NCBI GenBank assembly: GCA_900320245.1
Contig: ONRP01000014.1
Span: forward strand, 1-51,118
Reading direction: 5' to 3'
Source: an uncultured Prevotellaceae bacterium
GTDB lineage: Bacteria; Bacteroidota; Bacteroidia; Bacteroidales; Muribaculaceae
Length of the DNA stretch: 51,118 bases
Positions 25,953-39,235 of the stretch are shown here, piece after piece. The translations under genes were made by a program, and so were the position numbers. The notes beneath the pieces are model-generated. The model was given only the letters and a program-made list of their open reading frames with translations, did no database searches and had not been told where the DNA came from. The first letter of the stretch is position 1; each line of letters opens with the position of its first letter.

Positions 25953-26555
25953 CTACAGTGTGCAGAAGAAGGTGACGAGGAAGGGGACCGAAAAATCCAC
26001 AAGGAAACCGTGAAACAGTGACAGGATGACAAAGTCCTCGCCGCTGCTGCGTGTGATGATGGGCAACGTGGTGTCCATCGTTGTTGCCCCGCCGCAAGAG
26101 ATAGGGGAGAGCGGCCCGAAGTATCTTACCAGCAACGGAGCGCCCAACAGGGTGATGACCTCGCGGACAATGTTGGCGAGCAGGGCGACAGTGCCCAACT
26201 CCGGACCTTGGTATTGCGTGATAAGGATGCTGGACAGCGAGTAGTAGCCGAATCCCGAGCCCACGGCGAGGCAGTCGGCAAGGCTGCGGTGCGGCATTCC
26301 CAGCGATGCGATGGCCGTGGCACAGAGTGTGCCCATGATGGTCATCAAGGGTAGCAGCATCAGTCGCGGATCGAGGCTTTTGAAGGATTTCAGGAGTGTG
26401 GTGTTGTTGCCCACTGTGATGCCCACGCAGAACAGCAGGGCATAAAGTGTCCAGACACTGACGTTGCCGAAGGCGTTCAGGTCGGGCAACCAGTGCATTA
26501 CTCCGCAGACGATGCCCAGGACAAAGAACCCGACGATGATGAGGCTCCCTTTCAC
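25953..26555 (-). CDS. lysO: LysO-family exporter, C-terminal subunit (split gene)
   Basis: 200 residues, hydrophobic throughout, with about six helices (IIVGFFVLGIVCGVMHWL, TLYALLFCVGITVGNNTTLL, MLLPLMTIMGTLCATAIASLGM, and others) and the motifs VGSGFGYYSLSSI, GTVALLANIVREV and CGGATTMDTTLPII that match the larger domain of the lysine exporter LysO (YbjE). The start is GTG 26555, overlapping the stop of the upstream half by 4 bp (GTGA), so the two halves are translationally coupled. E. coli LysO is one 299-residue chain; here 93 plus 200 residues make the same total. Confidence 0.85.
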   Translation of the reverse strand: MKGSLIIVGFFVLGIVCGVMHWLPDLNAFGNVSVWTLYALLFCVGITVGNNTTLLKSFKSLDPRLMLLPLMTIMGTLCATAIASLGMPHRSLADCLAVGSGFGYYSLSSILITQYQGPELGTVALLANIVREVITLLGAPLLVRYFGPLSPISCGGATTMDTTLPIITRSSGEDFVILSLFHGFLVDFSVPFLVTFFCTL

Positions 26556-26833
26556 GACTCGCCTCCTTTCTTCTTGCAGTTGACCCACCGCCACAGAGCC
26601 CATGAGAAGAGCACTGTTCCCGCGATGCCGGCCAGTGACAGCCACAGGGCTTCCAGTCCCAGACTACTGATGCCGTTGATGACCTGCGGATTCTCGCCCA
26701 CCTCGACGCCCAGGAAGAACAGCAGCGCCCAGATGAGTACAGTCACCGCATGCGGCACCACCCGCAGCCGCCGTTTTCTGAGAAGAAATCCGACTGCGAT
26801 TCCGCTCAATATGATGGCAACGAACTTGAGCAT
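26552..26833 (-). CDS. LysO-family exporter, N-terminal subunit (split gene)
   Basis: 93 residues with three hydrophobic helices (FVAIILSGIAVGFLL, VTVLIWALLFFLGVEVGENPQVI, ALWLSLAGIAGTVLFSWALW), matching the N-terminal part of LysO. The motif FFLGVEVGENP is typical of this half. The frame is open upstream into repeat DNA, but ATG 26833 is only 7 bp after the -7 box (26848-26841), so earlier starts cannot be transcribed and the message is close to leaderless. Confidence 0.82.
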   Translation of the reverse strand: MLKFVAIILSGIAVGFLLRKRRLRVVPHAVTVLIWALLFFLGVEVGENPQVINGISSLGLEALWLSLAGIAGTVLFSWALWRWVNCKKKGGES

Positions 26834-26840: not shown

Positions 26841-26872
26841 CAAAGGTAGTGCAAGCCGAACACAATGGCAAA
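26841..26872 (-). promoter_or_regulatory. Promoter of split lysO, inside palindromic element copy R1
   Basis: TTTG at 26872-26869 and TACCTTTG at 26848-26841 with 20-nt spacing on the minus strand. The -33 lies in the inner arm and the -7 in the outer arm of the palindromic repeat. Confidence 0.7.
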
Positions 26873-26916
26873 AAACGAAGCCGTTTTTTGACCATAGTTG
26901 AGGCGCCGCCTACCTT
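26843..26916 (-). repeat. Palindromic promoter element, copy R1 (intact)
   Basis: Terminal inverted repeats AAGGTAG / CTACCTT and a strong inner hairpin CAAAAAACG-GCTT-CGTTTTTTG flanked by the pairing words ATGG/CCAT and AAC/GTT. On the minus strand the right end forms the -7 box of lysO. It is related to R2-R5. Confidence 0.75.
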
Positions 26917-26929
26917 CGCCACAGGCAGC

Positions 26930-27001
26930 GGTAGTGCAAGCCGAACACAATGGCAACAAACGAAGCCGTTTTTTGACCATAGTTGAGGCGCCTCCTACCT
27001 T
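26930..27001 (-). repeat. Palindromic promoter element, copy R2 (tandem, -7 box decayed)
   Basis: A direct copy of R1 at 85-bp offset; the matching block, extended slightly past the element (26845-26921 against 26930-27006), differs at 2 of 77 positions. Homology stops inside the -7 box: R1 has TACC-TTTG, R2 has TACC-GCTG, so R2 should not initiate. Confidence 0.75.
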
Positions 27002-27171
27002 CGCCATCATCTCGCCTGGAAGGCGAGTCTTTGAGCACGTGGTGATGCGGACTGCCGAGCAAAGCGAGTAAGACTGCATCACCACGGGAATGCGATGCAA
27101 CAGAATGTCGCTGGAGGCGACCCCAATGCCATACACTCCGTTGTTTTATTTGTTGGTTTTTAATCGTGTGT
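27002..27171. other. Intergenic DNA with two consecutive hairpins
   Basis: Between the R2 repeat and the promoter of the next gene. CTCGCCT-GGA-AGGCGAG (27011-27027) is a perfect 7-bp hairpin; CGTGGTGATGC / GCATCACCACG (27038-27048 and 27076-27086) is a perfect 11-bp inverted repeat with a 27-nt loop. No gene is seen. Confidence 0.55.
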
Positions 27172-27202
27172 TTTGCTGATTTTGAGAAATGGTGTAATTT
27201 TG
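27172..27202 (+). promoter_or_regulatory. Promoter of the DUF3828-like lipoprotein / M6 peptidase operon
   Basis: TTTG at 27172-27175 and TAATTTTG at 27195-27202, 19-nt spacing, 26 bp before ATG 27228. Confidence 0.7.
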
Positions 27203-27227
27203 CACGACAAGAAAACAATCAATAAAA

Positions 27228-27830
27228 ATGCAAATGATGAAATGGATATGGTCGATGGTGATGGTGTGTGCCCTGTGCGCATGCCATAGCCAGAGTGAGA
27301 ACGCAGGTACACCTAATCTCAAGGACAGTGCAAATCAGATTGCCGATGCCGAGGCTGTTCAGCAGCGCGTGCAAGAGATTTACAGCGACGTGTTCAAGGA
27401 GTATAACCTTGAGGACTCGCTGCGCAACCTGGATATGCTCGATGGCCCAGGCGCCAGTGCCCGCCGTGGTGACTTCAACCGGAATTATTGCAGCCGGGAG
27501 TGGAATGACTTGTCGCGCCAGATTCGCGAGATTGACAGCCTGTACCATGCCGATGAGTTGGGCTTTTGGGAGGCCGACTATTGGATTATGGGACAGGACT
27601 GGCATCAACTGTCGATCAGCGACATCGAGGTGCTGAACGTGTCGCCGACCGAGGCCGATGTCAAGTTCATGTTACACAACCTGGGTGAGGCTAAGCCTGT
27701 GGCCTTGATACTGGTCAAGGAAGACGGAATCTGGAAAATCGACAACTTCAAGGACCTGAATATTGACATGGATTGGAAACGGGCGATGAAGGAATATGTC
27801 GGCCAAGAATCAGCCAAAAACAAGAAATGA
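27228..27830 (+). CDS. DUF3828-like lipoprotein
   Basis: 200 residues with lipobox CALCAC (Cys19), a helical segment (ADAEAVQQRVQEIYSDVFKEYN), and a domain with DYWIMGQDWHQLSISDIEVLNVSPTEADVKFML ... ALILVKEDGIWKIDNFKDL that resembles DUF3828 (NTF2-like cone). The family assignment is tentative. Its stop overlaps the ATG of the M6 metallopeptidase by 4 bp (ATGA). A partner or inhibitor role for the peptidase is possible but unproven. Confidence 0.7.
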   Translation: MQMMKWIWSMVMVCALCACHSQSENAGTPNLKDSANQIADAEAVQQRVQEIYSDVFKEYNLEDSLRNLDMLDGPGASARRGDFNRNYCSREWNDLSRQIREIDSLYHADELGFWEADYWIMGQDWHQLSISDIEVLNVSPTEADVKFMLHNLGEAKPVALILVKEDGIWKIDNFKDLNIDMDWKRAMKEYVGQESAKNKK

Positions 27831-29560
27831 TGACCAAAAAGTTGATTCTCACGGCCGTGGTCGTGATGGCGTGTTGGGCCATGATGATGGCTGCCCCTGC
27901 CAAACCAGAGCCTTTTACCCACGTGCAAAGCGACGGCACGACAGTGACGTTGGTGATGCGGGGTGGGGAGTTTGTTCACTCGATGATGACTATGGACGGC
28001 CTGACGGTGGCCCTTGACGACAGGGGCAACTACTGCTACACTGCCGGCGGCGCCTTGAGTGATGTGCTGGCCCATGACAAGGGCCATCGTGGCGTCGAGG
28101 AGCAGGCTTTCATTGTCGCTTACCGCACCCAGATGACCATGGGTGCCGGTGTGCGCCGCATGCCTCGCCGTGAAGAGGAGAACAGCCAGCCGCAGGTGCC
28201 CACTATGGGTTCGCCGCGCATCCCCATCATTCTGGCCAATTACACCGATGTGCGATTCATCGATGACGACCCCGTGGTGACCTTTGAGAACCAGTTCAAC
28301 TTCAAGGAGTACAGTAGTCTGCACTATTTCGAGTCGCAGTCCCGAGGTGCGTTCTCACCGCGTTTCGAAATCCTGGGCCCCGTCGACCTGCCGCAGAACC
28401 GTTCTTTCTATGGCAAAAACAAGCGTATATTCGGTACCGAGGTCGACAAGCAATTGGGCACCATGATCTATGATGCCTGCATGGGATTGAACGATGTTGA
28501 TTTTTCCAACTACGACAACGACGGTGACGGCTTTGTCGACGTCGTGGTCGTGCTCTATGCCGGCGTGGGCGAGGCCCAGGCCTATAACACCGTCCCCGAG
28601 TCGGTGTGGCCCTGCCAGTGGGACATGACCGAGTCCCTTGAATGGGGGTGCAGCACTACGGGTCCCTTCCAACTCAACGGGGTGACCATCGACAAGTATG
28701 CCGTTTTCAATGAGTTGGAGGGGCGCTACGACACGAGCACCAACATCGACGGCGTGGGCACTTTCTGCCATGAGTTCGGCCATTGCTTGGGTCTGCCCGA
28801 CTTCTATCCCACCGATGGCGGTTACTACTACGGTATGAGCAACTGGGACATTATGGACAACGGCTGCTACCTGGGCGGCGGACACCGTCCCGCGGGCTAT
28901 ACCTCCTATGAGCGCCACTTCATGGGGTGGATGGACCTTACCGATGCCGCCCCCAACACCCGCTACACGCTCGCCCCGCTTAATACCGACGAGGGTGGCG
29001 CTGTCAAGGTCACCAACGATGCCAACCCCGATGAATACTACCTGCTCGAGTACCGCGTCAAGACAGGCTGGGATGAGTACTTGGCTGCCGAGGGCATATT
29101 GGTGCTGCACGTCGACTATGACAAGGCGGCCTGGGATGACAACTCCCCCAACAACATCGGCACCCATCAGCGCATGACAATCATTCCCGCCGACGGCTCC
29201 CTGACCAGTTACTCCAACAAGTACGACACATGGCCGCAGGGCGAACGGGATTCGCTTACCAACTATTCAACCCCTGCCGCTACGGTCTATACCGGTGGTT
29301 ATATGAATAAACCCATTACGTCCATGGCCGTAGATCAGCATAACGCCCTGGCATCGTTCTGGGTGATGCGGGCCGAAGTCCTGCCCGGTGACGTCAACGA
29401 TGACGGCGAGGTGAGCATTGCCGACGTCAATGCCCTCATCGGTATGATTCTGTCGGGACAACTCTTGTCCCGGGGTGATGTCAACGGCGACGGTGAAGTC
29501 AATATCGCCGATGTCAATGCCCTCATCGACATCCTGTTGGGAAAAGTCTCGGCACCATAG
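27827..29560 (+). CDS. Secreted M6-family metallopeptidase with C-terminal dockerin-like module
   Basis: 577 residues. Signal peptide MMTKKLILTAVVVMACWAMMMAAPA; a propeptide-like region to about residue 120; the M6 (immune inhibitor A type) catalytic domain with FCHEFGHCLGLPDFY (HExxH at 315-319, zinc ligands and catalytic Glu) and SNWDIMDNGCYLGGGHRPAGYTSYERHFMGW (Met-turn). A beta-rich region follows. The last 55 residues are two calcium-loop repeats, GDVNDDGEVSIADVNALIGMIL and GDVNGDGEVNIADVNALIDILL, the classic type I dockerin pattern. It is a zinc endopeptidase exported from the cell; the dockerin-like tail would tether it to a partner. It is followed by a strong terminator. Confidence 0.92.
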   Translation: MMTKKLILTAVVVMACWAMMMAAPAKPEPFTHVQSDGTTVTLVMRGGEFVHSMMTMDGLTVALDDRGNYCYTAGGALSDVLAHDKGHRGVEEQAFIVAYRTQMTMGAGVRRMPRREEENSQPQVPTMGSPRIPIILANYTDVRFIDDDPVVTFENQFNFKEYSSLHYFESQSRGAFSPRFEILGPVDLPQNRSFYGKNKRIFGTEVDKQLGTMIYDACMGLNDVDFSNYDNDGDGFVDVVVVLYAGVGEAQAYNTVPESVWPCQWDMTESLEWGCSTTGPFQLNGVTIDKYAVFNELEGRYDTSTNIDGVGTFCHEFGHCLGLPDFYPTDGGYYYGMSNWDIMDNGCYLGGGHRPAGYTSYERHFMGWMDLTDAAPNTRYTLAPLNTDEGGAVKVTNDANPDEYYLLEYRVKTGWDEYLAAEGILVLHVDYDKAAWDDNSPNNIGTHQRMTIIPADGSLTSYSNKYDTWPQGERDSLTNYSTPAATVYTGGYMNKPITSMAVDQHNALASFWVMRAEVLPGDVNDDGEVSIADVNALIGMILSGQLLSRGDVNGDGEVNIADVNALIDILLGKVSAP

Positions 29561-29594
29561 TCGTTCATTGGACCATAACACGTAATCCTGCGTC

Positions 29595-29640
29595 CAGCAG
29601 CAAGGTGAATCGGAAATCCTTGCTGCTGTGCCTTTTTTTA
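29595..29640 (+). terminator. Intrinsic terminator after the M6 peptidase gene
   Basis: Perfect 11-bp stem CAGCAGCAAGG / CCTTGCTGCTG with a 12-nt loop, followed by a run of seven T at 29633-29639. Confidence 0.88.
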
Positions 29641-29702
29641 TGCCATATTATGGGCGAAAATCAAGTTAAACCTAAAAATTCCACATTTTTTCTAAATTTT
29701 TC

Positions 29703-29733
29703 TTGTTTTTTATTAAATTATTTGTTAGATTTG
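29703..29733 (+). promoter_or_regulatory. Promoter (-33 TTG, 20 nt, -7 TAGATTTG)
   Basis: TTG at 29703-29705 and TAGATTTG at 29726-29733, about 60 bp upstream of the small lipoprotein gene. Confidence 0.6.
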
Positions 29734-29792
29734 CAGCATCCTTTTGGAAAGGAATACCTGATTATTATTGTACCTGATTATTTAAAATTTGG

Positions 29793-30284
29793 ATGATTAT
29801 GAGTTACGTGAAGTTATTTTTTGTGGCTTCCTGTGTCCTGTTTTTCAGGAACAGAAGGCTGTGCGTGCCCGAGGCGCCACGTCCGGCGCCGCATTTGGCA
29901 GCCCTGTTGTGTGTTCCGTTGCTGTTATTGGTATCGTTGCCGCTTCTCACCTCATGTGACAAGTCGGATGAGCCGGAATTTACTGTCGATTATTTTTTTA
30001 CTGTGGTATCGGGGCCGCCTGATTATGAGCCGGTGCCCAAGTCAGATGTGGCCTATACCATTACCAAAAAGATGAAGGAGTCCTTCAGGAAGGAATACCC
30101 AAAAGCCACCGTCGAGGGTAACGACGGGGCGGTGCTGAAGGCTTGCGACCTGGTGTATCTGAACTTCCTGCAAGAACATCCCGAAGCGGTCCAGTATTTC
30201 TATTGCGAAGCGAGGCTCAACCGCGCGCGGATGAGAGGCTCGATAGTGGTCAGTTACATCACAATCAAGCGCTATAATTTCTGA
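29793..30284 (+). CDS. Small lipoprotein-like protein, unknown function
   Basis: 163 residues (ATG 29799 also possible). An unusual N-terminus: a first hydrophobic stretch (KLFFVASCVLFF), a basic proline-rich spacer (RNRRLCVPEAPRPAPHL), then a lipoprotein-type segment ALLCVPLLLLVSLPLLTSC, so the mature protein may begin at Cys54. The domain after it (VDYFFTVVSGPPDYEPVPKSDVAYTITKKMKESF ... YLNFLQEHPEAVQYFYCEARLNRARMRGSIVVSYI) is not recognised. The real start may be an internal codon closer to the signal sequence, but no ATG is present there. Flanked by secreted dockerin peptidases. Confidence 0.65.
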   Translation: MIMSYVKLFFVASCVLFFRNRRLCVPEAPRPAPHLAALLCVPLLLLVSLPLLTSCDKSDEPEFTVDYFFTVVSGPPDYEPVPKSDVAYTITKKMKESFRKEYPKATVEGNDGAVLKACDLVYLNFLQEHPEAVQYFYCEARLNRARMRGSIVVSYITIKRYNF

Positions 30285-30301
30285 TGTAAGAAGAAAAACG
30301 G

Positions 30302-30309
30302 TATATTTG
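30302..30309 (+). promoter_or_regulatory. -7 box (TATATTTG) for the C10 peptidase gene
   Basis: TAnnTTTG match 104 bp before ATG 30413, leaving a long structured leader. No -33 TTTG at the right spacing. Confidence 0.5.
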
Positions 30310-30312
30310 TAG

Positions 30313-30360
30313 CCCTAAACTACAATGCAATGCGGCGAAGCCGCAGTTTAGAGTTTAGGG
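30313..30360 (+). promoter_or_regulatory. Structured 5' leader of the C10 peptidase gene
   Basis: CCCTAAAC / GTTTAGGG (8 bp) encloses an inner hairpin GCGGC-GAA-GCCGC. It starts just after the -7 box, so it lies at the extreme 5' end of the message. It may stabilise the transcript. Confidence 0.5.
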
Positions 30361-30412
30361 TTTAAAGATTAGAGATTTTCACCCACGACTAGAAACCCAA
30401 ATAACAGGCAAT

Positions 30413-32569
30413 ATGAGAAGAATAACATTATATATAATATTAGTGATGCTGTTGGCAACCCTGCCGATGACGGCGGCGCCTGTTGATGCCCTTGCTGCCA
30501 GTGAGGCGGCATCGCGCTTCGTCGCCGCCCAGGGCAGTGGTGGCAGCAGTAAGATAAAGGCCGTGAATCCCGCTGCCCTGCGGCTGGCCTACCGCCGACC
30601 GTCGGCTGCCTTGCCCGAAGCGGCCGACTACTACGTCTTTGACACCGGAGGCGGTTTTGTCATCGTTGCCGGTGATGATCGTGCCCAGGCCGTGTTGGCC
30701 TATGGCGACGGCCTGCCCGACATGGCTGCCCTGCCGTGCAACCTGAACTGGATGCTCAACCACTACGCTGAGCAGATGGAATGGCTGCACACCCATCCGG
30801 CGGCACGGGTAGAGCCGCAGTTCACGTCGACGACCGTCGTCGAGCCGCTGCTGCCCTGCACTTGGAGCCAAGGCACACCCTACTATGACCAGTGCCCCCT
30901 CTACCACGGTGAGCGTTGCGCAACGGGTTGCATCGCCACGGCGATGGCCCAGGTGATGTACTACTGGAAGTTTCCTGACACCCTGCCAGAGTTGCCCGCC
31001 TATACCACCATCATCAACAAAATCTATGTGCCTGCTTTGCCCGGTACGACATTGGACTGGGACAATATGCTCGACGGCTATGTTTACCAGAACTATACTC
31101 CCGCCCAGGGCGAGGCGGTGGCTACGCTGATGCGCTACTGCGGCCAGGGCTCAACGATGGAATACGGCACCGACGGCAGCGGCAGTGGCGCCTGGAACCA
31201 GTTGGTGGCCATGCAGGTGTTCGGCTATAACCTGAGCGCCCAGTCGTTGCACCGTGACGATTACGGCGCCGATGAGTGGAACGCCTTGATGCTTGAAGAC
31301 CTGACCGAGGGCATTCCCATCCTGTACACGGGCTATGGAGACGAGGGAGGCCATGCCTATGTGGTCGACGGATTTGACGGCAGCATGTATCACATTAACT
31401 GGGGTTGGGAAGGCAGTGGCAACGGTTATTTCGCGCTTGATGCGTTCATCGTCGGCCATTGGGATTTTTCTTTTGCCCAGCAGATGCAGCATCGTCTCTT
31501 TCCTGAGGTTTACTCGGGCTGCAGCGACCTGGAGGTTGACGGCGTGTTCTACAAGGTCGATGGTCATGAGGCCACGTTGACCTATGGCACACCCACCTTC
31601 AAGTCCTATGAGGGCCGTGTGGACATCCCGGCCCAGGTGACGGCCGGCGGCGTGACCTATGATGTCACGGCCATCGGCAACAATGCCTTCCGCAACTGCC
31701 GGCAGTTGACCAGCGTCACGTTGCCCTCGACCATAAGCCGCATCGGCAAGTATGCCTTCAAGGATTGTGTGGGCTTGTCGAGCGTGAACGTGCCGGGCAG
31801 TGTTGCCTTGATTGACTATGCCGCCTTCCAGGGGTGCATCAGCCTGTCGTCACTCACCCTGAACGACGGTCTTGAAGAAATCGGATACTACGCCTTCCAG
31901 GATTGCCGGTCACTCAAGCGGCTGTCGATACCCTGCAGCGTGAAAGCCATTGGTGACGGCGCTTTCATCTCGTGCAACGGATTGACAGATTTGACCATCA
32001 ACAATGATCCGGATATCGATATTGATGACTTCGACGGCGAGGGCTGCGAAATCGGCTATGCAGCCTTTGCCGATTGCTGGGCCCTGCGTGCGGCGTCGCT
32101 GGGCGACGGTGTGGTCGGCATCGGTGAGTCGGCGTTCTATCGATGCGGTCATCTGCAACATGTGACCATGGGGCTGACGATGGACCATATCGACAGCCTT
32201 GCCTTCCGCAACTGCCCCTCGTTGACGCAACTCATCGTGAAACCTGAGTTGCCGCCATTGCTTGCCGGGGTCAACTGCTTTGATGAGGGCCACTATGGTG
32301 CAGTGACCGTGGCGGTCCCTGCCTTCGCCCGCGACAACTACGTCTGTGACGAGTTGTGGACCCGCTTCTCGCGAATCGTCAATATCGAGGATATTGTGGT
32401 GATACCCGGCGACGTCAACGGCGACAGCGAGGTGAGCATTGCTGATGTCAACGCCGTCTTGGACATGATATTGTCGGGTTCGGTTGAGTCGCCCGGTGAT
32501 GTCAACGGCGACGGCGAGGTCAATGTCGCCGATGTCAACGCACTGACCGACATCATTCTCGGACAATAA
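30413..32569 (+). CDS. Secreted C10 (streptopain-like) cysteine peptidase with BspA-type leucine-rich repeats and a dockerin-like module
   Basis: 718 residues. Signal peptide ITLYIILVMLLATLPMTAAPVDA; inhibitory prodomain (AASRFVAAQ ... YYVFDTGGGFVIVAGDDRAQAVLAYGDG); C10 catalytic domain with ERCATGCIATAMAQVMYYW (catalytic Cys173), GGHAYVVDGFD (catalytic His314) and INWGWEGSGNGYF. Residues about 410-640 hold LRR_5 (BspA-type) repeats of the form AIGNNAFRNCRQLTSVTLPSTI. The last 55 residues are two dockerin repeats (GDVNGDSEVSIADVNAVLDMIL, GDVNGDGEVNVADVNALTDIIL). A secreted peptidase with a binding scaffold and a tether, probably for host or dietary protein. The first dockerin loop has Ser in place of the usual Gly after the third Asp. 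Confidence 0.93.
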   Translation: MRRITLYIILVMLLATLPMTAAPVDALAASEAASRFVAAQGSGGSSKIKAVNPAALRLAYRRPSAALPEAADYYVFDTGGGFVIVAGDDRAQAVLAYGDGLPDMAALPCNLNWMLNHYAEQMEWLHTHPAARVEPQFTSTTVVEPLLPCTWSQGTPYYDQCPLYHGERCATGCIATAMAQVMYYWKFPDTLPELPAYTTIINKIYVPALPGTTLDWDNMLDGYVYQNYTPAQGEAVATLMRYCGQGSTMEYGTDGSGSGAWNQLVAMQVFGYNLSAQSLHRDDYGADEWNALMLEDLTEGIPILYTGYGDEGGHAYVVDGFDGSMYHINWGWEGSGNGYFALDAFIVGHWDFSFAQQMQHRLFPEVYSGCSDLEVDGVFYKVDGHEATLTYGTPTFKSYEGRVDIPAQVTAGGVTYDVTAIGNNAFRNCRQLTSVTLPSTISRIGKYAFKDCVGLSSVNVPGSVALIDYAAFQGCISLSSLTLNDGLEEIGYYAFQDCRSLKRLSIPCSVKAIGDGAFISCNGLTDLTINNDPDIDIDDFDGEGCEIGYAAFADCWALRAASLGDGVVGIGESAFYRCGHLQHVTMGLTMDHIDSLAFRNCPSLTQLIVKPELPPLLAGVNCFDEGHYGAVTVAVPAFARDNYVCDELWTRFSRIVNIEDIVVIPGDVNGDSEVSIADVNAVLDMILSGSVESPGDVNGDGEVNVADVNALTDIILGQ

Positions 32570-32591
32570 GTTTTTTCATGATAACACAAAG

Positions 32592-32627
32592 ACGAGGCGG
32601 AGACCAATCGGTCCCCGCCTCGTTTTT
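32592..32627. terminator. Strong terminator between convergent genes
   Basis: ACGAGGCGG-A-GACC / GGTC-C-CCGCCTCGT, a 13-bp stem with one mismatch and loop AATC, followed on the plus strand by TTTTT. On the minus strand it is followed by CTTTGTG, so it may also work there. Confidence 0.85.
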
Positions 32628-32646
32628 GACACTGTAGTGTGATGCT

Positions 32647-33063
32647 TTACTTGTCGGCGATTTCCTGCAGTTTGCTCAGGAAGGCCAGACGTGCCCCTTG
32701 CAACAGGCTGATGGCACGCGGAACGATGTCGCTGAGTTCGGGCGTTGTGTCGGCGAGAATCTCGAATGCAGCCCACACGCTGCTCTCGCTCTTGCCCTCT
32801 TCGTCCTCGATGTCCATCGTGTAGAGTTTCACGACTTTGATACTGCCGTTCACCTCGTTCATCACCTGCATGATGGTGTCCTCGTTGTCCTCGGTGACGA
32901 CAAAGATGGCGGGCATCATCAGGCGGAAGTACTGCTCGTCGTCCTCGTCTTTGAAATAGAGGAAATTGAAGCCTTCGTTCTTGAAAGCGATGCCGAAGGG
33001 CGTCTCATGGGGGCGGAAGCCCTCTTCGGCCAGGTAGTTGATCATTAATTTGTTGAGATCCAT
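32647..33063 (-). CDS. YbjN-like protein (type III secretion chaperone-like fold)
   Basis: 138 residues, acidic, no signal or membrane segment. The sequence MDLNKLMINYLAEEGFRPHETPFGIAFKNEGFNFLYFKDEDDEQYFRLMMPAIF ... MNEVNGSIKVVKLYTMD has the helix-hairpin-strand pattern of YbjN-type proteins that resemble secretion chaperones. Function is unknown in Bacteroidota. It is the last gene of a four-gene operon, 26 bp after the kinase-AAA+ gene, which makes it a candidate adaptor or regulated client of that ATPase. Confidence 0.72.
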   Translation of the reverse strand: MDLNKLMINYLAEEGFRPHETPFGIAFKNEGFNFLYFKDEDDEQYFRLMMPAIFVVTEDNEDTIMQVMNEVNGSIKVVKLYTMDIEDEEGKSESSVWAAFEILADTTPELSDIVPRAISLLQGARLAFLSKLQEIADK

Positions 33064-33089
33064 ATTATTAGTGTTTAGTGTTATTGTTT

Positions 33090-34937
33090 TCAGTTGTTGG
33101 TGTTGAATCCCACGCGCGGCAGGGCATTGGTGCGGGAGATGCCTTCCATCTGGTCGCGCATGCCCTCGTATTCCTTGAGCAGTTCCTTGCTGACCGAGGG
33201 CTTGATGCCCTCCAGGGTCTTGATGAGCAGTTCCTGGGTGATGGGCTCGTGGTTAAAGGCAGCGATGGTGGCGGCCTCGTTGACGATGTAGGCGATGTCG
33301 CTGGCGACATATCCGTCGGACTTGGCCGCCAGGGCGTCGCTGTCGATGCCCTCGCAGGGGCGGTCCTTGAGGTAGAGTTCAAACATCAGTTTGCGCGCCG
33401 TGGGGTCGGGCATGGGCACATAGACCTGCTTGTCGATGCGTCCGGTGCGCAGCACGGCGGGGTCTACCTTGTCGGGCCTGTTGCTGGTGGCGATGACAAA
33501 GATGCCGCGCTTGGAGCAGTTGTTCAGTTGCGAGAGGAACTCGTTGACCTCGCCGGCCTGGTTGCCGCCGGAGTTGTCGGTGGAACGGTTGGGGACGAAG
33601 GCGTCAAACTCGTCGAAGCACAGCACGGTGGGGGCATTTTTCTCGGCCTTCTTGAACAGGTCGGCGATTTTGCTCTGTGAACCATGGATGTAGATTGAGC
33701 CCAGGTCGCTGGCTTTGACCAGAATGAAGTTAAAGCCGGTTTCCTCGGCAAATTTTTCGGCAAAGAAACTCTTGCCGCAGCCCGGAGGACCGTAGAGCAG
33801 CATACCGTTGGGCGGGGTGAGTTTATACTGTTCGGCCAGTTCCTTGTCCTTGAGAATCAGGATGACGCGCTTGCGCAGCATCTCCTTGAGTTCGTCCATA
33901 CCGGCAATGTCGGCGAAACCGTTGCCGCTGCCGCGCTTGATTTCAACGTCGGCACTGGTCATGGGGTCGCTGCGCTCGCTGCTGCGGCTGTCGTGCTCGT
34001 CTTCGCTTTCTTCCATCTCGCGGCGTTCGCGCATCGCCTGGCGTGCGGCAATCTGCTCTCGCAGTTCGCGGGCCTGCTCGCTGTCCTCGTCGGCGAGCAG
34101 ATATTCAATCAGTTCATCGACGGTGTCGATGCGCTCGGTATAGGCCAGGGCCATGCCCTGGGTGATAATGTCCTTGAGTTTCTGCTCCTCGATGTCGCTG
34201 ACGTCGATTTCGCCCTTCTCGCTGCGTGCAGCCTGTACGAGTCTGATTTTGTCTTTGCGCCTCATCTCGGGCGGGAATTCCACATCCCAGGGAGCCCGTC
34301 CGGTGAGCATCGTGTAGAACACAGCGGTAGCGGCAAAGATGTCGTTGAGTTCGTCATATTTGCCGAGGAATGACTGTCCGCTCGCATATCGCGGGTCGAG
34401 GTCGGCGGTGTCGAAGGGCGCATTGCCCATGAAGCAGGGCGAGATGTGCCCCAGGTCGATGAGTTCGGCCACGCCGCCGGTCTTGCTGCTGAGCATGACG
34501 TTGGTGGGGTTGATGTCGTTGTGCAACAGGATGCCGGGCTGCTCGTGCAGGTACTGCAATCCCTCGAGCATCTCGAGGAAGATTTTCACTGCCGTGTCGC
34601 GGTCGAGTTTTCCCTCGCGCTGCAGCATCTCGCTGAGCAGTTCGCCGCTGAAGTAGGTGGCGACGAGGTATCGGCATTCTCCTGACTCGTCGCTGTACTT
34701 GCCGTCGGCGATGTAACTCACGATGTTCTTGTGGCTGAGTCGGCGGCTGACGGCAATTTCGGTGACGTCACCGTCGACGATGAGTTTGTCGGGGGTGCAC
34801 TTGAGGCGGTACATCTTCATGAAATAAGGATTGCCGCTCTCGTCCTCGACGCGGTAACTCTCGGCATAGGGGTTCTCCTTGATGAGGTAGACCACATGCC
34901 ATTTATTGTCGATAATTTGTCCTGGTTTGAGAATCAT
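33090..34937 (-). CDS. Hanks-type protein kinase fused to an AAA+ ATPase
   Basis: 615 residues, no signal or membrane segment. Residues about 10-280 form a eukaryotic-like kinase: Lys41 (YFMKMY), helix-C Glu60, catalytic loop HNDINPTN (His139, Asp141, Asn146) and D161-L-G in place of DFG. The glycine-rich loop is replaced by KENPYAESYRV. A charged low-complexity linker (about 285-325) follows. Residues about 335-600 are an AAA+ domain of the CDC48/FtsH type: FADIAGMDELKEML, Walker A GPPGCGKS (383-390), Walker B VLCFDEFDAF, and a second region of homology ATSNRPDKVDPAVLRTGRID with its arginine finger. A hexameric remodeller controlled by an attached kinase is the natural inference; substrates are unknown. 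It lies 16 bp after a MauE/DoxX membrane gene and 26 bp before a YbjN-like gene. Confidence 0.88.
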   Translation of the reverse strand: MILKPGQIIDNKWHVVYLIKENPYAESYRVEDESGNPYFMKMYRLKCTPDKLIVDGDVTEIAVSRRLSHKNIVSYIADGKYSDESGECRYLVATYFSGELLSEMLQREGKLDRDTAVKIFLEMLEGLQYLHEQPGILLHNDINPTNVMLSSKTGGVAELIDLGHISPCFMGNAPFDTADLDPRYASGQSFLGKYDELNDIFAATAVFYTMLTGRAPWDVEFPPEMRRKDKIRLVQAARSEKGEIDVSDIEEQKLKDIITQGMALAYTERIDTVDELIEYLLADEDSEQARELREQIAARQAMRERREMEESEDEHDSRSSERSDPMTSADVEIKRGSGNGFADIAGMDELKEMLRKRVILILKDKELAEQYKLTPPNGMLLYGPPGCGKSFFAEKFAEETGFNFILVKASDLGSIYIHGSQSKIADLFKKAEKNAPTVLCFDEFDAFVPNRSTDNSGGNQAGEVNEFLSQLNNCSKRGIFVIATSNRPDKVDPAVLRTGRIDKQVYVPMPDPTARKLMFELYLKDRPCEGIDSDALAAKSDGYVASDIAYIVNEAATIAAFNHEPITQELLIKTLEGIKPSVSKELLKEYEGMRDQMEGISRTNALPRVGFNTNN

Positions 34938-34953
34938 ATCGTTAGGTTGGAAT

Positions 34954-36270
34954 TTAGAGATTAGAGTCGTTTTCTTTTTTCTTGTTGAAGAAGAGCCTCT
35001 TGATAACCAAGTGGGAGCGGTTGAGTACCAGCAGGCCCAGCATGGCGACCATGAAGGCGATCATGAGACTGGTCATGATTTTGTCGGTGTCGTAGTCGTC
35101 GGCGAGGGCAGCCAGTTCGATGGGCTGCTCGGCGCCTTCGAGCGACGAGAGCGTCCGTTTCCAGGTGATAAGGCCGTTCTGGACAAAGACGACAGCGGGG
35201 TTGCCGCGGGCGACCATCTTGAGTTCGCTGTCATCCATATTGTAGATGGGATAGGAGGCCATCGAGATGTCCTTCCATTGTTTGATTTCCTGAGCCGTGG
35301 CAGGGGTGAGGCCAATCACGTCGATATCGCTTACCAGCGCTGCATCGTTGAGTTCGTTGAGGCTATAGGAGTTGACGACGCCCACCTCGGGCAGGTCGGG
35401 GAAGAGCAGCAACAGGGCCGGTTTGCCAGTGGTGAGCACATCGGCGGTGATGTCGGTGCCGTCCTCGTCAAGGATGGCGATGCCGCTGTCGGTCTGTCCG
35501 TTCTGCACAATGACTTTGCCGCGCGGCCTGTTGGCGTGGTAACGGGTGACATATTCCCATCCGTCTTCTTCGTCGGGCAGGCTGTCGATGGTGAATTCCT
35601 GCTCAACGCCGTTGCGGCTGTAGACAAAGATGAAGTCATCTTCACTGCCTCCGTCATCCTCGGTGACCGCCGCTAGGCGTGTGCCGACGGGGTAGGGGCG
35701 GTAATCGATGAGTGGCTGGTGGAAGTAGCCGTAGTAGGCGACCGCCATGACCATGGCAAACGAGATTGCCATGACGGCCCAGTGCACGGCAGGACCATAG
35801 ATGCCCTTGACCGACTTGTTGAACATCAGCAGATAGACGAGTCCCAGGAGCAGCAGCACATTCTTGAAAAAGGTGGCCCAATTGCTCAAGTGCCATGCGT
35901 CGCCAAAGCAGCCACAGTCGGGCACCGCGTCGGTGACGGCGAGCCACAGCGTGACCGGGGTGAGCACGAGCATCAGCAGCAGGGCGAGCAGGGGTGCACT
36001 GCGGCGGTAGGCGCCCACGACGATGGCGATTCCCAGCAAGAACTCCAAGGCTGCTAGGCTGACGGCGATGAACAAGGCGATGCCCGTCCATCCGTCCATC
36101 CCCCAGGCGTTCAAGTAATCTGTGACCTTATAGGCGGCGCCCCAGGGGTCTACTGCCTTGGTGAATCCCGAGAAGACGAACACTGCACCCACCACGAGCC
36201 TCATGAGTATCGTCATCACACGACACCATTTCTCGTACTTGACAGCGTTGATAAAAGCCTTGATGGTCAT
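34954..36270 (-). CDS. MauE/DoxX-like redox membrane protein (BT_3928 family)
   Basis: 438 residues. Helices at about 18-40, 60-85, 90-112, 130-150 and 163-182 form a DoxX/MauE-like core (LMRLVVGAVFVFSGFTKAVDPWGAAYKVTDYL), with the cysteine pair in VPDCGCFGDAWHLSNWATFFKNVLLL that is typical of MauE/VKOR-like thiol-redox proteins. A periplasmic region (about 185-395) follows with the features of a bacteroidal accessory domain, then a last helix IMTSLMIAFMVAMLGLLVL and a basic tail. Probably handles disulfides in the envelope; the electron partner is unknown. In other Bacteroidales this gene also follows a DUF1599 gene, as here (19 bp). Confidence 0.82.
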   Translation of the reverse strand: MTIKAFINAVKYEKWCRVMTILMRLVVGAVFVFSGFTKAVDPWGAAYKVTDYLNAWGMDGWTGIALFIAVSLAALEFLLGIAIVVGAYRRSAPLLALLLMLVLTPVTLWLAVTDAVPDCGCFGDAWHLSNWATFFKNVLLLLGLVYLLMFNKSVKGIYGPAVHWAVMAISFAMVMAVAYYGYFHQPLIDYRPYPVGTRLAAVTEDDGGSEDDFIFVYSRNGVEQEFTIDSLPDEEDGWEYVTRYHANRPRGKVIVQNGQTDSGIAILDEDGTDITADVLTTGKPALLLLFPDLPEVGVVNSYSLNELNDAALVSDIDVIGLTPATAQEIKQWKDISMASYPIYNMDDSELKMVARGNPAVVFVQNGLITWKRTLSSLEGAEQPIELAALADDYDTDKIMTSLMIAFMVAMLGLLVLNRSHLVIKRLFFNKKKENDSNL

Positions 36271-36289
36271 TTTGTAGTGATGTTAGGGC

Positions 36290-36850
36290 TTAGCCCTGGC
36301 TATCGGTTGACAGTTGCTCGTTGTGCCTGATCAGGGCAAACACACTGTAGTTGATCATGTCCTGGTAGTTGGCGTCGATGCCCTCGCTCACCAGGGTGGC
36401 GCCGCCATGGTTCTCGATTTCCTTGGTGCGCTGTATCTTGGTGAGAATCAGGTCGGTGTAACTGGAGATGCGCATGTCACGCCAAGCCTCGCCGTAGTCG
36501 GTGTTTTTGGCAATCATCAACGCCTTGGTCGCTGCGATGAGTTCATCGTACATGCTCAGCGCCTGTTCGTTGCTGATGTCCACGGTGTCGCTGCAGCCCA
36601 GCCGCAGTTGAATGAGTCCGATGATGCCATAGTTGATAATGCCGACAAATTCGGGCCAGATGTCCTCGCCCACCATGGTGTCGCCATTGAGTTCGAGGGT
36701 ACGGATGCGCTTGGCCTTGATGAAAATCTGATCGGTGACCGAGCGTGGTCTGAGGATGCGCCACGAGGGTCCGTAGTCCTTCATTTTGTTGATGAACAGT
36801 TCACGGCACTGAGCGATAACCTCGTCATATTGTTTGCTTGTATTGTGCAT
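36290..36850 (-). CDS. DUF1599 protein with internal duplication
   Basis: 186 residues, no signal peptide. Two similar halves: KMKDYGPSWRILRPRSVTDQIFIKAKRIRTLE (about 22-55) and KNTDYGEAWRDMRISSYTDLILTKIQRTKEIE (about 115-148), each followed by an acidic helix ending in INYGIIGLIQLRL or INYSVFALIRHN. The repeated DYG-x-x-WR and following charged helix suggest an all-alpha, MazG-like or nucleotide-handling fold, but this is inference; the family has no assigned function. First gene of a four-gene operon driven from 36877-36907. Confidence 0.83.
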   Translation of the reverse strand: MHNTSKQYDEVIAQCRELFINKMKDYGPSWRILRPRSVTDQIFIKAKRIRTLELNGDTMVGEDIWPEFVGIINYGIIGLIQLRLGCSDTVDISNEQALSMYDELIAATKALMIAKNTDYGEAWRDMRISSYTDLILTKIQRTKEIENHGGATLVSEGIDANYQDMINYSVFALIRHNEQLSTDSQG

Positions 36851-36876
36851 ACGTTCTCAAAATTGATATTAAACCA

Positions 36877-36907
36877 CAAAGATAGTGCAAGCCGAGAGGA
36901 GTGGCAA
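36877..36907 (-). promoter_or_regulatory. Promoter of the DUF1599/kinase-AAA+ operon, within element copy R3
   Basis: TTG at 36907-36905 and TATCTTTG at 36884-36877, 20-nt spacing, 27 bp before ATG 36850. Confidence 0.7.
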
Positions 36908-36957
36908 GCAAAAAAGCAATTTTTTTGCATTGACACACCCGAGGCGCCGCCTATCTT
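36879..36957 (-). repeat. Palindromic promoter element, copy R3
   Basis: Terminal inverted repeats AAGATAG / CTATCTT, inner arms GCAAAAAA / TTTTTTGC with 5-nt loop, plus pairing words CAA/TTG and GTG/CAC between them. Same architecture as R1 but a diverged sequence in which pairing is kept. It lies between divergent genes. Confidence 0.72.
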
Positions 36958-36969
36958 GGGCGAAGCGGA

Positions 36970-37001
36970 TTTGCGTGCCTTGCCAAAAAACACTAATTTT
37001 G
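36970..37001 (+). promoter_or_regulatory. Promoter of the acyltransferase gene (-33 TTTG, 20 nt, -7 TAATTTTG)
   Basis: TTTG at 36970-36973 and TAATTTTG at 36994-37001; 50 bp before ATG 37052. Divergent from the promoter in R3. Confidence 0.7.
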
Positions 37002-37051
37002 CCGCTTCGATAGTTATGTGCTTTGTCCGTTGAATCAATGGCGATAGAATT

Positions 37052-38101
37052 ATGTTGTTAGGCCTGCTGTTACTGCTTTTTGTCTTGTGCCTGTATCGTG
37101 TGGAGGTAAACCTTGGTGGCTTCCATGCCGATTACCTGTCCAAGCCCAAGACCGATAGCGTGAAGGGCTTCTTTATTGTGGCCGTGCTGTTCAAGCATGC
37201 AGTCGGCTACCTCAATGACCTGGAATGCGGCTTTGAAGGCCTGGGCGACCACTGGTTTGTGTCGTTCAACAATTGCCTCGGGCAGTTGATGGTGGTGATG
37301 TTCCTGTTCTATTCGGGCTACGGCATCAGCGAGTCGTTCAAGCAGAAAGGCGAGGCCTACCTCAAGAGGTATCCCACCAGGCGCATCATGACCACGCTGC
37401 TCAACTTTGACGTGGCGGTAATGGCCTTTGTGCTGCTCGATTGGGCGTTGGGTATTCGAGTAACGACATCACAGGTTATGCTATCCCTGACTGGGTGGGA
37501 GAATGTGGGCAACAGCAACTGGTATATCTTCGTCATCATCATGTGCTATGTGCTGGCGTGGGTGGCGTTGAGGCTGCCGCTGCGGCAGTGGCTGCACCGT
37601 GCGGTATTCCTGTTCGTCCTGTGTCTCGCTCTGCTGGTGGTGCTGTCGCTGATCAAGGACACCTACTGGTTTGACACGTTGATGGCTTTCCCTGCAGGCT
37701 TTATGTTCTCGGCCTGTAAAGACCGGGTGGAGCGATTCCTCCAGCGTTGGTACTGGTTGCTGCTCACTGTGCTGGCCCTGTCGGTAGCCGTGCAACTGTA
37801 TGGTTTCTGGAGCGGGTGGTATGTCGACAGGTTGTGTCTGACCTACAATACTTTGAGCATCACGTTTGGACTGCTGGTGGTTATGCTGACGATGAAGGTG
37901 GGTATCGGCAACGGGGCATTGCAGTGGCTGGGAGTGCATCTCTTTCCCATCTACATCTACATGAGGATTCCGATGATGATTATGGTGCAGTGGCAACCCG
38001 GTCTGGTAACGGCCTGTCCTGCTGCATTTGTCGCGGTGAGTCTTGTCGTGACGTTGCTGATTGCATGGTTGTATCGCTACTGGCAAATCAGGCTGGGGTG
38101 A
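37052..38101 (+). CDS. Acyltransferase-3-like membrane protein
   Basis: 349 residues with about ten hydrophobic helices. The N-terminal part DSVKGFFIVAVLFKHAVGYL holds a His in the position of the catalytic His of acyltransferase family 3 (OatA/WecH type), followed by FVSFNNCLGQLMVVMFLFYSGYGISESFKQKG, the usual second motif. It would transfer acetyl or similar groups to an extracytoplasmic glycan; the acceptor is unknown. Assignment rests on motif pattern and topology. Confidence 0.8.
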   Translation: MLLGLLLLLFVLCLYRVEVNLGGFHADYLSKPKTDSVKGFFIVAVLFKHAVGYLNDLECGFEGLGDHWFVSFNNCLGQLMVVMFLFYSGYGISESFKQKGEAYLKRYPTRRIMTTLLNFDVAVMAFVLLDWALGIRVTTSQVMLSLTGWENVGNSNWYIFVIIMCYVLAWVALRLPLRQWLHRAVFLFVLCLALLVVLSLIKDTYWFDTLMAFPAGFMFSACKDRVERFLQRWYWLLLTVLALSVAVQLYGFWSGWYVDRLCLTYNTLSITFGLLVVMLTMKVGIGNGALQWLGVHLFPIYIYMRIPMMIMVQWQPGLVTACPAAFVAVSLVVTLLIAWLYRYWQIRLG

Positions 38102-38205
38102 CATGGCCCCGCAGTGGCACCAGCCATTGATGCGATGGCACGATTCTTGCTTATTATAAAAGGCTGAAAGGCGGAGCCGTCGATTGGTGGTCTCGCTTCT
38201 TTAGG
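38102..38205. other. Intergenic DNA after the acyltransferase gene
   Basis: GC-rich and no gene seen. GGCTGAAAGGCGGAGCC near 38162-38178 is a weak inverted repeat. It ends at the first palindromic element. Confidence 0.4.
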
Positions 38206-38283
38206 AAGATAGGCTGCACCTTAACAATGTCAAATCAAAAAAAAGTGTTTATTTGTTTGCCATTGTATGCGGTTTGCACTATC
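38206..38283 (+). repeat. Palindromic promoter element, copy R4 (distal, -7 box lost)
   Basis: 78 bp that match R5 at 77 positions. It starts AAGATAGGC and ends ACTATC; the next bases are GTTC instead of TTTG, so the -7 box is destroyed. Inner arms are A8 and T-rich words around GTG. Confidence 0.8.
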
Positions 38284-38311
38284 GTTCCCCGCGTTGCAGG
38301 GCCCCTTGGGT

Positions 38312-38389
38312 AAGATAGGCTGCACCTTAACAATGTCAAATCAAAAAAAAGTGTTTTTTTGTTTGCCATTGTATGCGGTTTGCACTATC
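38312..38389 (+). repeat. Palindromic promoter element, copy R5 (proximal, intact)
   Basis: Starts AAGATAGGC and ends ACTATC followed by TTTG, giving terminal inverted repeats AAGATAG / CTATCTT. ACAATG / CATTGT and CAAA / TTTG pair in the inner stem. Separated from R4 by 28 bp. Confidence 0.8.
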
Positions 38390-38393
38390 TTTG
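38362..38393 (+). promoter_or_regulatory. Promoter of the polyprenol-phosphate mannosyltransferase gene
   Basis: TTTG at 38362-38365 and TATCTTTG at 38386-38393, 20-nt spacing, 44 bp before ATG 38438. It lies in the right part of R5. Confidence 0.75.
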
Positions 38394-38437: not shown

Positions 38438-39235
38438 ATGAAGTCAGACAGTATAGTAATCATTCCCACCTATAACGAGAAGGAGAACATCCGTGCTATC
38501 ATCGCTGCGGTACTGGCGCTTGAGGAGCATCAGTTCGATGTGCTGATAGTGGATGATAACTCCCCCGATGGCACGGGCGCCATCGTCGATGAGATCATCG
38601 CCGAGCAGCCCGAGCGTGTCCACATCCTGAAACGTGCGGGCAAGCAGGGACTGGGTACTGCCTATATTGCCGGCTTCAAGTGGGCGCTGGAACGTGACTA
38701 CGAGTACATCACCGAGATGGACGCCGATTTCTCACACCCGGTCGACAAGTTGCCCGAACTGCAGCGGACGTGTGCCAGCGGCGATGCCGACGTGGCCGTC
38801 GGGTCGCGTTACATTTCAGGGGTAAATGTCGTTAATTGGCCGATGGGCAGGATGCTGATGAGTTATTATGCGTCGGCCTATGTGCGTCTGGTTACTGGAA
38901 TGAAGGTGCGTGATGCGACGGCGGGCTTTGTGTGCTACCGCCGCGAGGTGCTGCAGAGTATCGACCTCGACGCAATTGAGTTCAAGGGCTACGCGTTCCA
39001 AATCGAGATGAAATTCACCGCCCATCGCATGGGCTTCACAATCAAGGAGGTGCCTATCGTGTTCGTCAACCGCGTGCTTGGAACAAGCAAGATGAACAGT
39101 AGTATCTTCTTTGAGGCATTATGGGGTGTGATCAAACTGCGCTGGGACTCGATCTTCAACAAGAAGCGTTTCCAGCGTCGCCCGTTACCATCCGCCAAAC
39201 CTCAGCCTTCTGAGCCTTCGACCGAGGGCGCATAG
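38438..39235 (+). CDS. Polyprenol monophosphomannose synthase (GT2)
   Basis: 265 residues, GT-A fold of the dolichol/polyprenol-phosphate mannose synthase type: SIVIIPTYNEKENI, VDDNSPDGTGAIVDE, KQGLGTAYIAGFKWAL, the metal-binding EMDADFSHP, DVAVGSRYISG, and DATAGFVCYRREVLQSIDLDAIEFKGYAFQIEM. No C-terminal membrane domain, as in soluble DPM1-type enzymes; a basic proline-rich tail ends the chain. It makes polyprenyl-phosphate-mannose for envelope glycosylation, possibly O-glycosylation of secreted proteins. A TTG at 38429 in frame is a weaker start. Confidence 0.9.
   Translation: MKSDSIVIIPTYNEKENIRAIIAAVLALEEHQFDVLIVDDNSPDGTGAIVDEIIAEQPERVHILKRAGKQGLGTAYIAGFKWALERDYEYITEMDADFSHPVDKLPELQRTCASGDADVAVGSRYISGVNVVNWPMGRMLMSYYASAYVRLVTGMKVRDATAGFVCYRREVLQSIDLDAIEFKGYAFQIEMKFTAHRMGFTIKEVPIVFVNRVLGTSKMNSSIFFEALWGVIKLRWDSIFNKKRFQRRPLPSAKPQPSEPSTEGA

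What the first reader, a model, noticed from the sequence alone, without database searches (positions are those of the whole stretch)
26841..38393. A five-copy family of ~80-bp palindromic elements that carry working promoters
Copies at 26843-26916, 26930-27001, 36879-36957, 38206-38283 and 38312-38389 share ends AAGRTAGGC (left) and CTAYC (right), with a hairpin of A/T-rich arms between. Where the -7 box is TACCTTTG the far end is AAGGTAG; where it is TATCTTTG the far end is AAGATAG. The arms covary, so pairing is kept while sequence drifts. Inner pairs also covary (CAAAAAACG/CGTTTTTTG; GCAAAAAA/TTTTTTGC; CAAA/TTTG with ACAATG/CATTGT). In every intact copy the right arm plus TTTG is the -7 box of the adjacent gene and the -33 lies in the inner arm. 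This looks like a MITE-like or RNA-hairpin element that became a promoter module for lysO, the kinase-AAA+ operon and a mannosyltransferase.
Basis: seen in the sequence. Interest (0 to 1): 0.8.

Follow-up and report, generated by a model that had tools for sequence, protein, structure and literature searches.

The report
Mobile palindromic promoters inserted at promoters
Short self-complementary DNA elements, dozens per genome in many gut bacteria, sit exactly at the start signals of ordinary genes and bring a new start signal with them, so gene switches in these bacteria appear to be replaced again and again by a repeat that looks mobile.

Summary
The five copies are real and belong to a large family: 79 copies in 55 clusters in this genome, 33 of 37 genus members sampled, 22 of 207 sampled genera of the order. 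Pairing is kept through double changes (324 cells; shuffles 110, slid controls 32-80). NN of the -7 box TANNTTTG matches its complement in the left arm in 87 of 116 copies (shuffle maximum 44). Promoter anatomy: 43 of 55 cluster-final copies end in TANNTTTG against 2 of 24 upstream copies; TTG lies 19-20 nt upstream in 41 of 43. In four relatives 24 of 89 orthologous sites carry the element; 49 of the other 65 have a plain -7 box there. In other Bacteroidales it often stands directly behind an older -7 box (42 of 135; control windows 3-6), with direct repeats from TTTG of 7 nt or more in 8 of 21 (0 of 10,000 shuffles as high). Best reading: a non-autonomous palindromic mobile element that inserts at the TTTG of promoters and takes over the gene. 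In the window's own genus the insertion signature is nearly absent (1 of 26), and no mobilising enzyme was found.

The parts
26841..26920 (-). Palindromic promoter element, intact, gene-proximal copy of a tandem pair; -7 box TACCTTTG at 26841-26848, TTG of the -33 at 26869-26871 (20 nt between), left arm AAGGTAG
26926..27005 (-). Upstream tandem copy; nearly the same sequence but -7 box altered to TACCGCTG
26552..26833 (-). First part of lysO (Lys_export PF03956), downstream of the element at 26841; ATG 7 nt after TTTG
36877..36961 (-). Palindromic promoter element, single copy; -7 box TATCTTTG at 36877-36884, TTG of the -33 at 36905-36907
36290..36850 (-). DUF1599 gene (PF07659), first gene downstream of the element at 36877; MauE/DoxX gene and kinase-AAA+ gene follow
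38202..38287 (+). Upstream tandem copy; -7 box altered to TATCGTTC
38308..38393 (+). Palindromic promoter element, intact, gene-proximal; -7 box TATCTTTG at 38386-38393, TTG of the -33 at 38363-38365
38438..39235 (+). GT2 glycosyltransferase gene (PF00535) downstream of the element at 38308; in the relative G016 the same promoter position holds an element with a different interior

Best explanation
A non-autonomous, palindromic mobile element of about 65-90 bp. Its right end is a Bacteroidetes-type promoter: a TTG (-33) in the inner arm and TANN at the very end, which becomes a -7 box TANNTTTG when joined to TTTG. It inserts right behind the TTTG of an existing gene's -7 box, so that TTTG and often a few following bases are repeated on both sides. 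The old promoter is left upstream and a new one faces the gene. Further insertions or tandem duplication build arrays; in this genome the gene-nearest copy usually keeps the -7 box and upstream copies usually do not. Shown here: the family, the covariation, the promoter anatomy, orthologous sites without it, old -7 boxes directly upstream in other genera, direct repeats beginning TTTG there. Inferred: that the same process built the copies in the window's own genus, that it moves as a DNA hairpin with an enzyme supplied in trans, that the promoter is active, and that upstream copies are silenced by selection.
For: Family size and range. Pairing through double changes. NN of the -7 box and left arm covary: 58 of 78 in the own genome (shuffle maximum 33) and 29 of 38 in relatives (maximum 19); arms unrelated to a -7 box pair too (CATGTTT, CATCAAT, CCACCTT). 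The NN of the element differs from that of the old box it stands behind in several cases (for example TACC, TATT or TAAT upstream, TATC in the element), so the arms come with the element and are not copied from the target. Promoter: 43/55 final copies intact against 2/24 upstream; TTG at 19 or 20 nt in 41/43. All 30 final copies examined in detail (of 55 clusters) lie 4-205 nt before an ORF in the right sense. Relatives: present at 17/27 (G016), 0/21 (G002), 3/20 (G006), 4/21 (G036) orthologous sites; 49/65 sites without it have a plain TANNTTTG within 20 nt of the aligned box. Old -7 boxes upstream in other genera: 42/135 against 3, 5, 6 and 3 in control windows; by a rough rule 28 of the 42 are not tails of another copy. 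Direct repeats of 7 nt or more: 8 of 21, shuffle mean 2.6, maximum 7 in 10,000; leaving out the common TTTGCATAAG type, 4 of 14, 27 of 10,000 as high. Sites without the element while the old promoter is recognisable in the occupied genome: BV3P1 L177 against L416, and L137 against L421. Arrays of unlike elements in P. timonensis (L426, L435).
Against: No mobilising gene found: Y1 transposases do not track copy number (with counts) and no integron integrase passes the cut-off in 12 genomes. In the window's own genome 1 of 26 and in its genus relatives 0 of 15 first copies found by the pattern have an old -7 box upstream, so there the insertion model rests on other genera, and locus 6 looks like replacement of the native promoter. 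13 of 21 sites repeat fewer than 7 nt, and the rows are not all independent (L415 and L166 are orthologs). Most adjacent array members are alike (ratio 0.9 or more in 39 of 49, 7 of 9 and 3 of 7 pairs in other genera, own genome and relatives), which tandem duplication alone explains. One measure is unremarkable (further pair types 21 against 18.5, reached by 42 of 500 shuffles), and its 24 rows were chosen by hand. The arm test in the 44 other-genus copies (36 match, shuffle maximum 36) says nothing, since their loci were picked by end sequence. A first repeat test gave 2 of 44 (389 of 5000 shuffles as high) with a filter that wrongly removed TTTGCAT sites. No transcription or mobility data.
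Confidence: 0.66

Rival explanations
1. A classical MITE: terminal inverted repeats AAGATAG/CTATCTT cut by a DDE transposase of a related insertion sequence with a preference for TTTGCA targets.
For: Inverted ends, direct repeats of 7 nt or more at 8 of 21 sites, no coding capacity at this length, high copy number.
Against: Pairing extends over the whole length with changing sequence, not just the ends; direct repeats vary in length and often stop at TTTG. No insertion sequence with matching ends was noticed, but none was searched for.
Confidence: 0.25
2. No dedicated mobility. Strong promoter sequences are spread by rare ectopic gene conversion or template switching at the shared TANNTTTG, multiplied by tandem duplication, and the arms are kept alike by arm-to-arm template switching at the quasi-palindrome.
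For: Most adjacent copies are alike. Double changes with few G-U intermediates fit copying of one arm from the other. In the own genus the native promoter looks replaced rather than interrupted (locus 6). Mosaic and inverted copies exist (L009, L015).
Against: Old promoters directly upstream of the element and direct repeats of differing sequence (TTTGCAC, TTTGCAA, TTTGCATCG, TTTGCCTTCA) point to insertion. Arrays of unlike elements exist. The left and right ends keep the same asymmetric form (GGCTGC on the left, TTGCAC on the right) in several genera.
Confidence: 0.2
3. A regulatory hairpin: a binding site for a regulator, or an RNA structure, kept by selection on the genes it precedes.
For: It lies at promoters and pairing is conserved.
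Against: At the same gene in relatives the interior is exchanged for an unrelated one or the element is absent. Ten downstream proteins looked up belong to unrelated families. Paired arms are also kept in copies that are not promoters. The hairpin is upstream of its own start.
Confidence: 0.07

Closest known systems
Correia elements of Neisseria (PMC10969869, passages read)
   Same: Short repeats with inverted ends, over 100 copies, mapped mostly immediately upstream of genes, subtypes carrying strong promoters; one inserted immediately downstream of a promoter
   Different: Another phylum and promoter type; here the whole element is a covarying palindrome and its end completes a -7 box at the target
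BrickBuilt and other MITEs of Porphyromonas gingivalis (PMC4596501: outline with abstract, passages, part 1 of 2 of section 7)
   Same: Bacteroidales, intergenic, promoter activity, tandem repeats inside, target duplications of varying length
   Different: Inverted ends such as GAGACCTTTGCA shared with IS5-family elements; 19 copies; bidirectional promoters; found by its authors in P. gingivalis and P. gulae; no hairpin covariation or -7 targeting in what I read
REP/REPIN elements and RAYT transposases (PMC3733652, PMC3116915; titles and starts of abstracts)
   Same: Dispersed palindromes, often in arrays
   Different: REPs are 20-40 bp and tagged at one end (GTAG or CGTC in the title); here 65-90 bp with a promoter and variable ends, and Y1 genes do not track copy number
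Integron attC sites (PMC6393395, PMC3053210; starts of abstracts)
   Same: Palindromic sites recognised as folded single-stranded hairpins; asymmetric outer part, variable tip and direct arrays (these three recalled)
   Different: No GTTRRRY core (recalled consensus), no gene in the unit, no integron integrase over the cut-off
CTnDOT-type integrases (recalled; searches brought no text stating the core site)
   Same: Recalled target GTANNTTTGC looks like a -7 box plus C
   Different: Large conjugative elements; nothing here links an integrase to these repeats

Membership tests
MITE | short, non-coding, many dispersed copies | tested here: met
   79 copies of about 65-90 bp in 55 clusters; two copies with nested or enlarged loops are longer
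MITE | terminal inverted repeats | tested here: met
   All 7 end bases complementary in 57 of 116 copies, NN matched in 87 of 116
MITE | target site duplication | tested here: inconclusive
   8 of 21 sites repeat 7 nt or more, 0 of 10,000 shuffles as high, but length varies and the own genus shows almost no old box
MITE | parent transposon with the same ends | not tested
   No search for an autonomous element was made
REP/RAYT | accompanied by a Y1 (RAYT) transposase | tested here: not met
   element-free G004, G015, G021, G030 have 5, 9, 1, 8 Y1 matches; G028 (55 copies) and G012 (34 copies) have none, at 78% and 83% completeness
REP/RAYT | fixed tag (GTAG or CGTC) at one end | tested here: not met
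   Right ends vary: CTATC, CTACC, CTAAT, CTATT, CATGT and others
Integron cassette/attC | integron integrase in the genome | tested here: not met
   0 of 12 genomes over the cut-off of TIGR02249 (several are drafts)
Integron cassette/attC | GTTRRRY core site (recalled) | tested here: not met
   73 distinct junctions read TANNTTTG or altered forms of it
Bacteroidetes promoter | TTTG or TTG near -33 and TANNTTTG at -7, about 19-21 nt apart (consensus recalled) | tested here: met
   43 of 55 final copies have the box; 41 of those 43 have TTG at 19 or 20 nt
Bacteroidetes promoter | transcription starts just downstream | not testable with these tools
   no transcript data
Known structured RNA | match to an Rfam family | tested here: not met
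   Only a cobalamin riboswitch at 46881-47099 reaches the gathering score in the window

The most novel reading that the evidence does not exclude
A mobile promoter that uses promoters as its attachment site: the unit folds as a single-stranded DNA hairpin, and a host or element-borne recombinase joins it at TTTG, where the transcription bubble exposes single strands. The junction of two units (CTATCTT-TGCAT-AAGATAG in P. timonensis) would itself be a recombination site, giving arrays by repeated integration of unlike units, while in this genus one working promoter per array is kept. This would be a site-specific recombination system whose targets are promoters.
Probability: 0.2. Interest if true: 0.88.

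Novelty: new variant of a known kind. Interest (0 to 1): 0.7.

Why it matters
If right, many genes in gut and rumen Bacteroidales, including housekeeping ones (uridine kinase, DnaX, enolase, RNB exonuclease, RlmL, PrmC, RelA/SpoT), are read from promoters supplied by a repeat that lands on existing promoters and differs between closely related species. That gives a natural series of matched promoter swaps for studying how expression is rewired, a caution for promoter annotation in this order, and an unknown mobilising machinery to look for. Covariation that reaches into the -7 box asks directly why a double-stranded promoter should have to be a palindrome.

Tried and rejected
RNA family search of the window: nothing at the elements. 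Y1/RAYT transposase as mobiliser: no correlation. Integron integrase: none over the cut-off in 12 genomes. Viral contigs: 0 exact matches to the strict pattern. Papers: the listings show no description of this family; only open-licence PMC papers are held, listings were capped, and I opened three papers in part. Invertible promoters set aside: the whole unit is a palindrome, so inversion would not switch it off; I noticed one inverted copy (L015) but did not search for others. A 3' UTR hairpin was set aside for lysO, whose copies stand between divergent genes.

Failed or weak steps and dropped rows. Searches had wrong patterns and found nothing; one search ran, but its filter removed the TTTGCAT sites (2 of 44, not significant). 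One search repeated the repeat test on 21 rows but left out two unfavourable rows (L128, L142) and added L166 and L385; restores the two (8 of 21; with L166 and L385 10 of 23) and is the one I rely on. From the 28 native-like rows the 7 array rows are left out of that test. (125 of 162) pooled 44 other-genus copies chosen by end sequence and counted one G016 place twice; one search gives the cleaned counts used here. Alignment A2 is 24 hand-chosen rows: copies without a good left arm or redundant (such as L015, L017, L018, L022, L030, L033) were left out; A3 is not hand-chosen, but it is fitted to the model and 11 of its 94 rows are copies seen on the other strand. In one search I used 79 of the 94 rows; of the 15 dropped, 11 are such reverse views and 4 weak extra matches. 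One search covers 27 of 30 loci: 17 had no usable ortholog, 25 and 26 were left out, and rows with a short upstream stretch were dropped. The first look at orthologs was cut in the middle. In one search the pattern found only 26 of the 55 own-genome clusters.
Full report
Observation. The window (contig C50 of an unnamed draft genome of 3.02 Mb) holds the five copies as described: one tandem pair before lysO, one single copy before a DUF1599 gene, one tandem pair before a GT2 gene. As single-stranded DNA all five fold better than dinucleotide shuffles (z -2.26 to -4.97). Three of five have an intact TANNTTTG; the upstream copy of each pair does not.

Family. A pattern of both ends hits 16 places in the genome, one of them by eye a chance hit, against 1 for the reversed control; the right end with up to two mismatches hits 68 places against 3. 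A covariance model from 24 hand-chosen copies gives 92 matches at E 1 or better, some of them the same copy seen on the other strand. After fetching the surroundings I counted 79 copies in 55 clusters, 20 of which hold two to four copies. The same model finds the family in 33 of 37 genus members sampled, own genome included (9 to 67 matches; none in G004, G015, G021, G030), and in 2 of 24 genomes of other families; and in 40 of 393 genomes and 22 of 207 genera sampled across the order (strict filters). The distribution is patchy.

Structure. On the unselected set of 94 matches from the own genome (83 places, the rest reverse views) 86.4% of cells pair; 324 cells are changed on both sides, against 110 in shuffles and 32-80 with partners slid by 1-3 columns (this alignment is fitted to the model and leans towards pairing). 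On the 24 rows aligned without a structure the figures are 87.7%, 55, 18.5 and 9-26; one measure there, further pair types, is unremarkable. One-sided changes are few. Of 78 copies folded as RNA 55 have z below -2. In 78 own-genome copies NN of the -7 position equals the complement of the left arm in 58 (shuffle mean 19.9, maximum 33); in relatives in 29 of 38 (10.9, 19); among copies with an intact box in 64 of 73. In 44 copies from other genera 36 match, but their loci were picked by end sequence and the shuffle maximum is also 36, so they do not count. Copies without a -7 box can have fully complementary arms too (CATGTTT, CATCAAT, CCACCTT), so pairing is not a by-product of the promoter sequence.

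Promoter. Thirty array-final copies examined in detail all lie 4-205 nt before an ORF in the sense of the promoter. Over all 55 clusters 43 end in TANNTTTG and 51 have an ATG-started ORF within 260 nt. TTG stands 19 or 20 nt upstream of the box in 41 of 43; upstream array members keep the box in 2 of 24 cases. In the 8 near-identical adjacent pairs, 14 of 64 box positions differ but only 7 of 578 others (Fisher p 1.6e-10; pairs can share ancestry, so p is optimistic). Over 73 distinct array junctions from all sources TTTG is kept at the standard place in 13; the rest show several different changes. In P. timonensis inner boxes are often intact, so silencing is not universal. Ten downstream proteins looked up belong to ten unrelated families, mostly housekeeping.

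Relatives. Orthologs were usable at 27 of the 30 loci. The element is present at 17 of 27, 0 of 21, 3 of 20 and 4 of 21 sites in G016, G002, G006 and G036; where absent, 49 of 65 sites have a plain TANNTTTG within 20 nt of the aligned box. Side by side, occupied sites in the nearest of these relatives sometimes have the same interior (loci 5, 22, 24, 27) and sometimes another one (loci 3, 7, 14, 29), with the -7 box and downstream sequence still aligned. Locus 6 looks like a gain in the window's genome: three relatives have TAAATTTG behind a short spacer, the window's genome has two elements and TATCTTTG.

Insertion point. Outside the genus, 42 of 135 first copies have a complete TANNTTTG within 30 nt upstream of the left end, against 3, 5, 6 and 3 in four control windows further up; by a rough rule 28 of the 42 are not tails of another copy. 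The spacing is 3 nt in 13 of these 28 and 7-17 nt in 15. The upstream box often has other NN than the element, so I take it for the old promoter. In BV3P1 (L177) and H. timonensis (L137) the old promoter region can be recognised in an ortholog without the element (L416, L421). Upstream of gpmI four genomes of the H. timonensis genus without the element have TACCTTTGCA (L393, L396, L398, L404), the same box that stands behind the element in H. timonensis and BV3P1. In 21 single insertions with such a box the right flank repeats the left flank from TTTG on for 7 nt or more in 8, against 2.6 in shuffles and at most 7 in 10,000; without the common TTTGCATAAG type 4 of 14, reached by 27 of 10,000. 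The repeats differ in sequence (TTTGCAT, TTTGCAC, TTTGCAA, TTTGCATCG, TTTGCCTTCA), which fits duplication of the target. In the own genome this signature is nearly absent (1 of 26 first copies found by the pattern; relatives 0 of 15). I infer older insertions whose native promoter has decayed, or another route there.

Mechanism. Shown: a dispersed family with turnover at orthologous promoters, promoter anatomy in the right half, position behind TTTG in several genera, pairing kept throughout. Inferred: movement as DNA, perhaps as a folded single strand, because the whole length pairs, G-U pairs are few (7.7% against 14.9% in shuffles), and a constant asymmetry of the two ends could mark one strand. 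Unknown: the enzyme. Y1 transposases and integron integrases were tested and do not fit.

Known relatives. Promoter-carrying MITEs are known: Correia elements (PMC10969869, passages) and BrickBuilt in P. gingivalis (PMC4596501). This family differs in being a full-length covarying palindrome and in standing on the -7 box. The paper searches named under Tried and rejected brought no description of it; the library is limited. I rate it a new variant of a known kind.

Noticed in passing
L022:1379-1515 (G000 C40:88135-88271): An element nested inside the loop of another element, with the outer hairpin and -7 box intact.
   Followed up: partly
L341, L343, L345, L346, L347, L348, L355, L094: Related palindromes in the same genome whose end arms are not a -7 box (such as AAATTTG, AAACATG, TTGATG), partly in tandem; a non-promoter branch of the family.
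   Followed up: partly
L015 (G000 C28:113059) and L009 (C17:8774): A copy in inverted orientation whose downstream end still reads TTGCACTATCTTTG; and a copy that joins the left arm of one interior class to the right arm of another.
   Followed up: no
L017, L018 (G000 C32:57765 and 60331): Right halves of the element alone stand directly behind a GC-rich terminator-like hairpin, still ending in TATCTTTG.
   Followed up: no
L391 (G450) and L387 (G443): A related subfamily with right end GTTGGCACTATCTTTG upstream of gpmI, in L391 as an array with TTTGCAT between copies.
   Followed up: no
window 33090-34937 (-): One protein with a protein kinase domain and an AAA ATPase domain (PF00069, PF00004), a combination that seems unusual to me.
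   Followed up: no
window 25953-26833 (-): lysO is encoded as two overlapping ORFs, a short first part and a full Lys_export part.
   Followed up: no
window 46881-47099 (+): Cobalamin riboswitch (RF00174, 101 bits).
   Followed up: no
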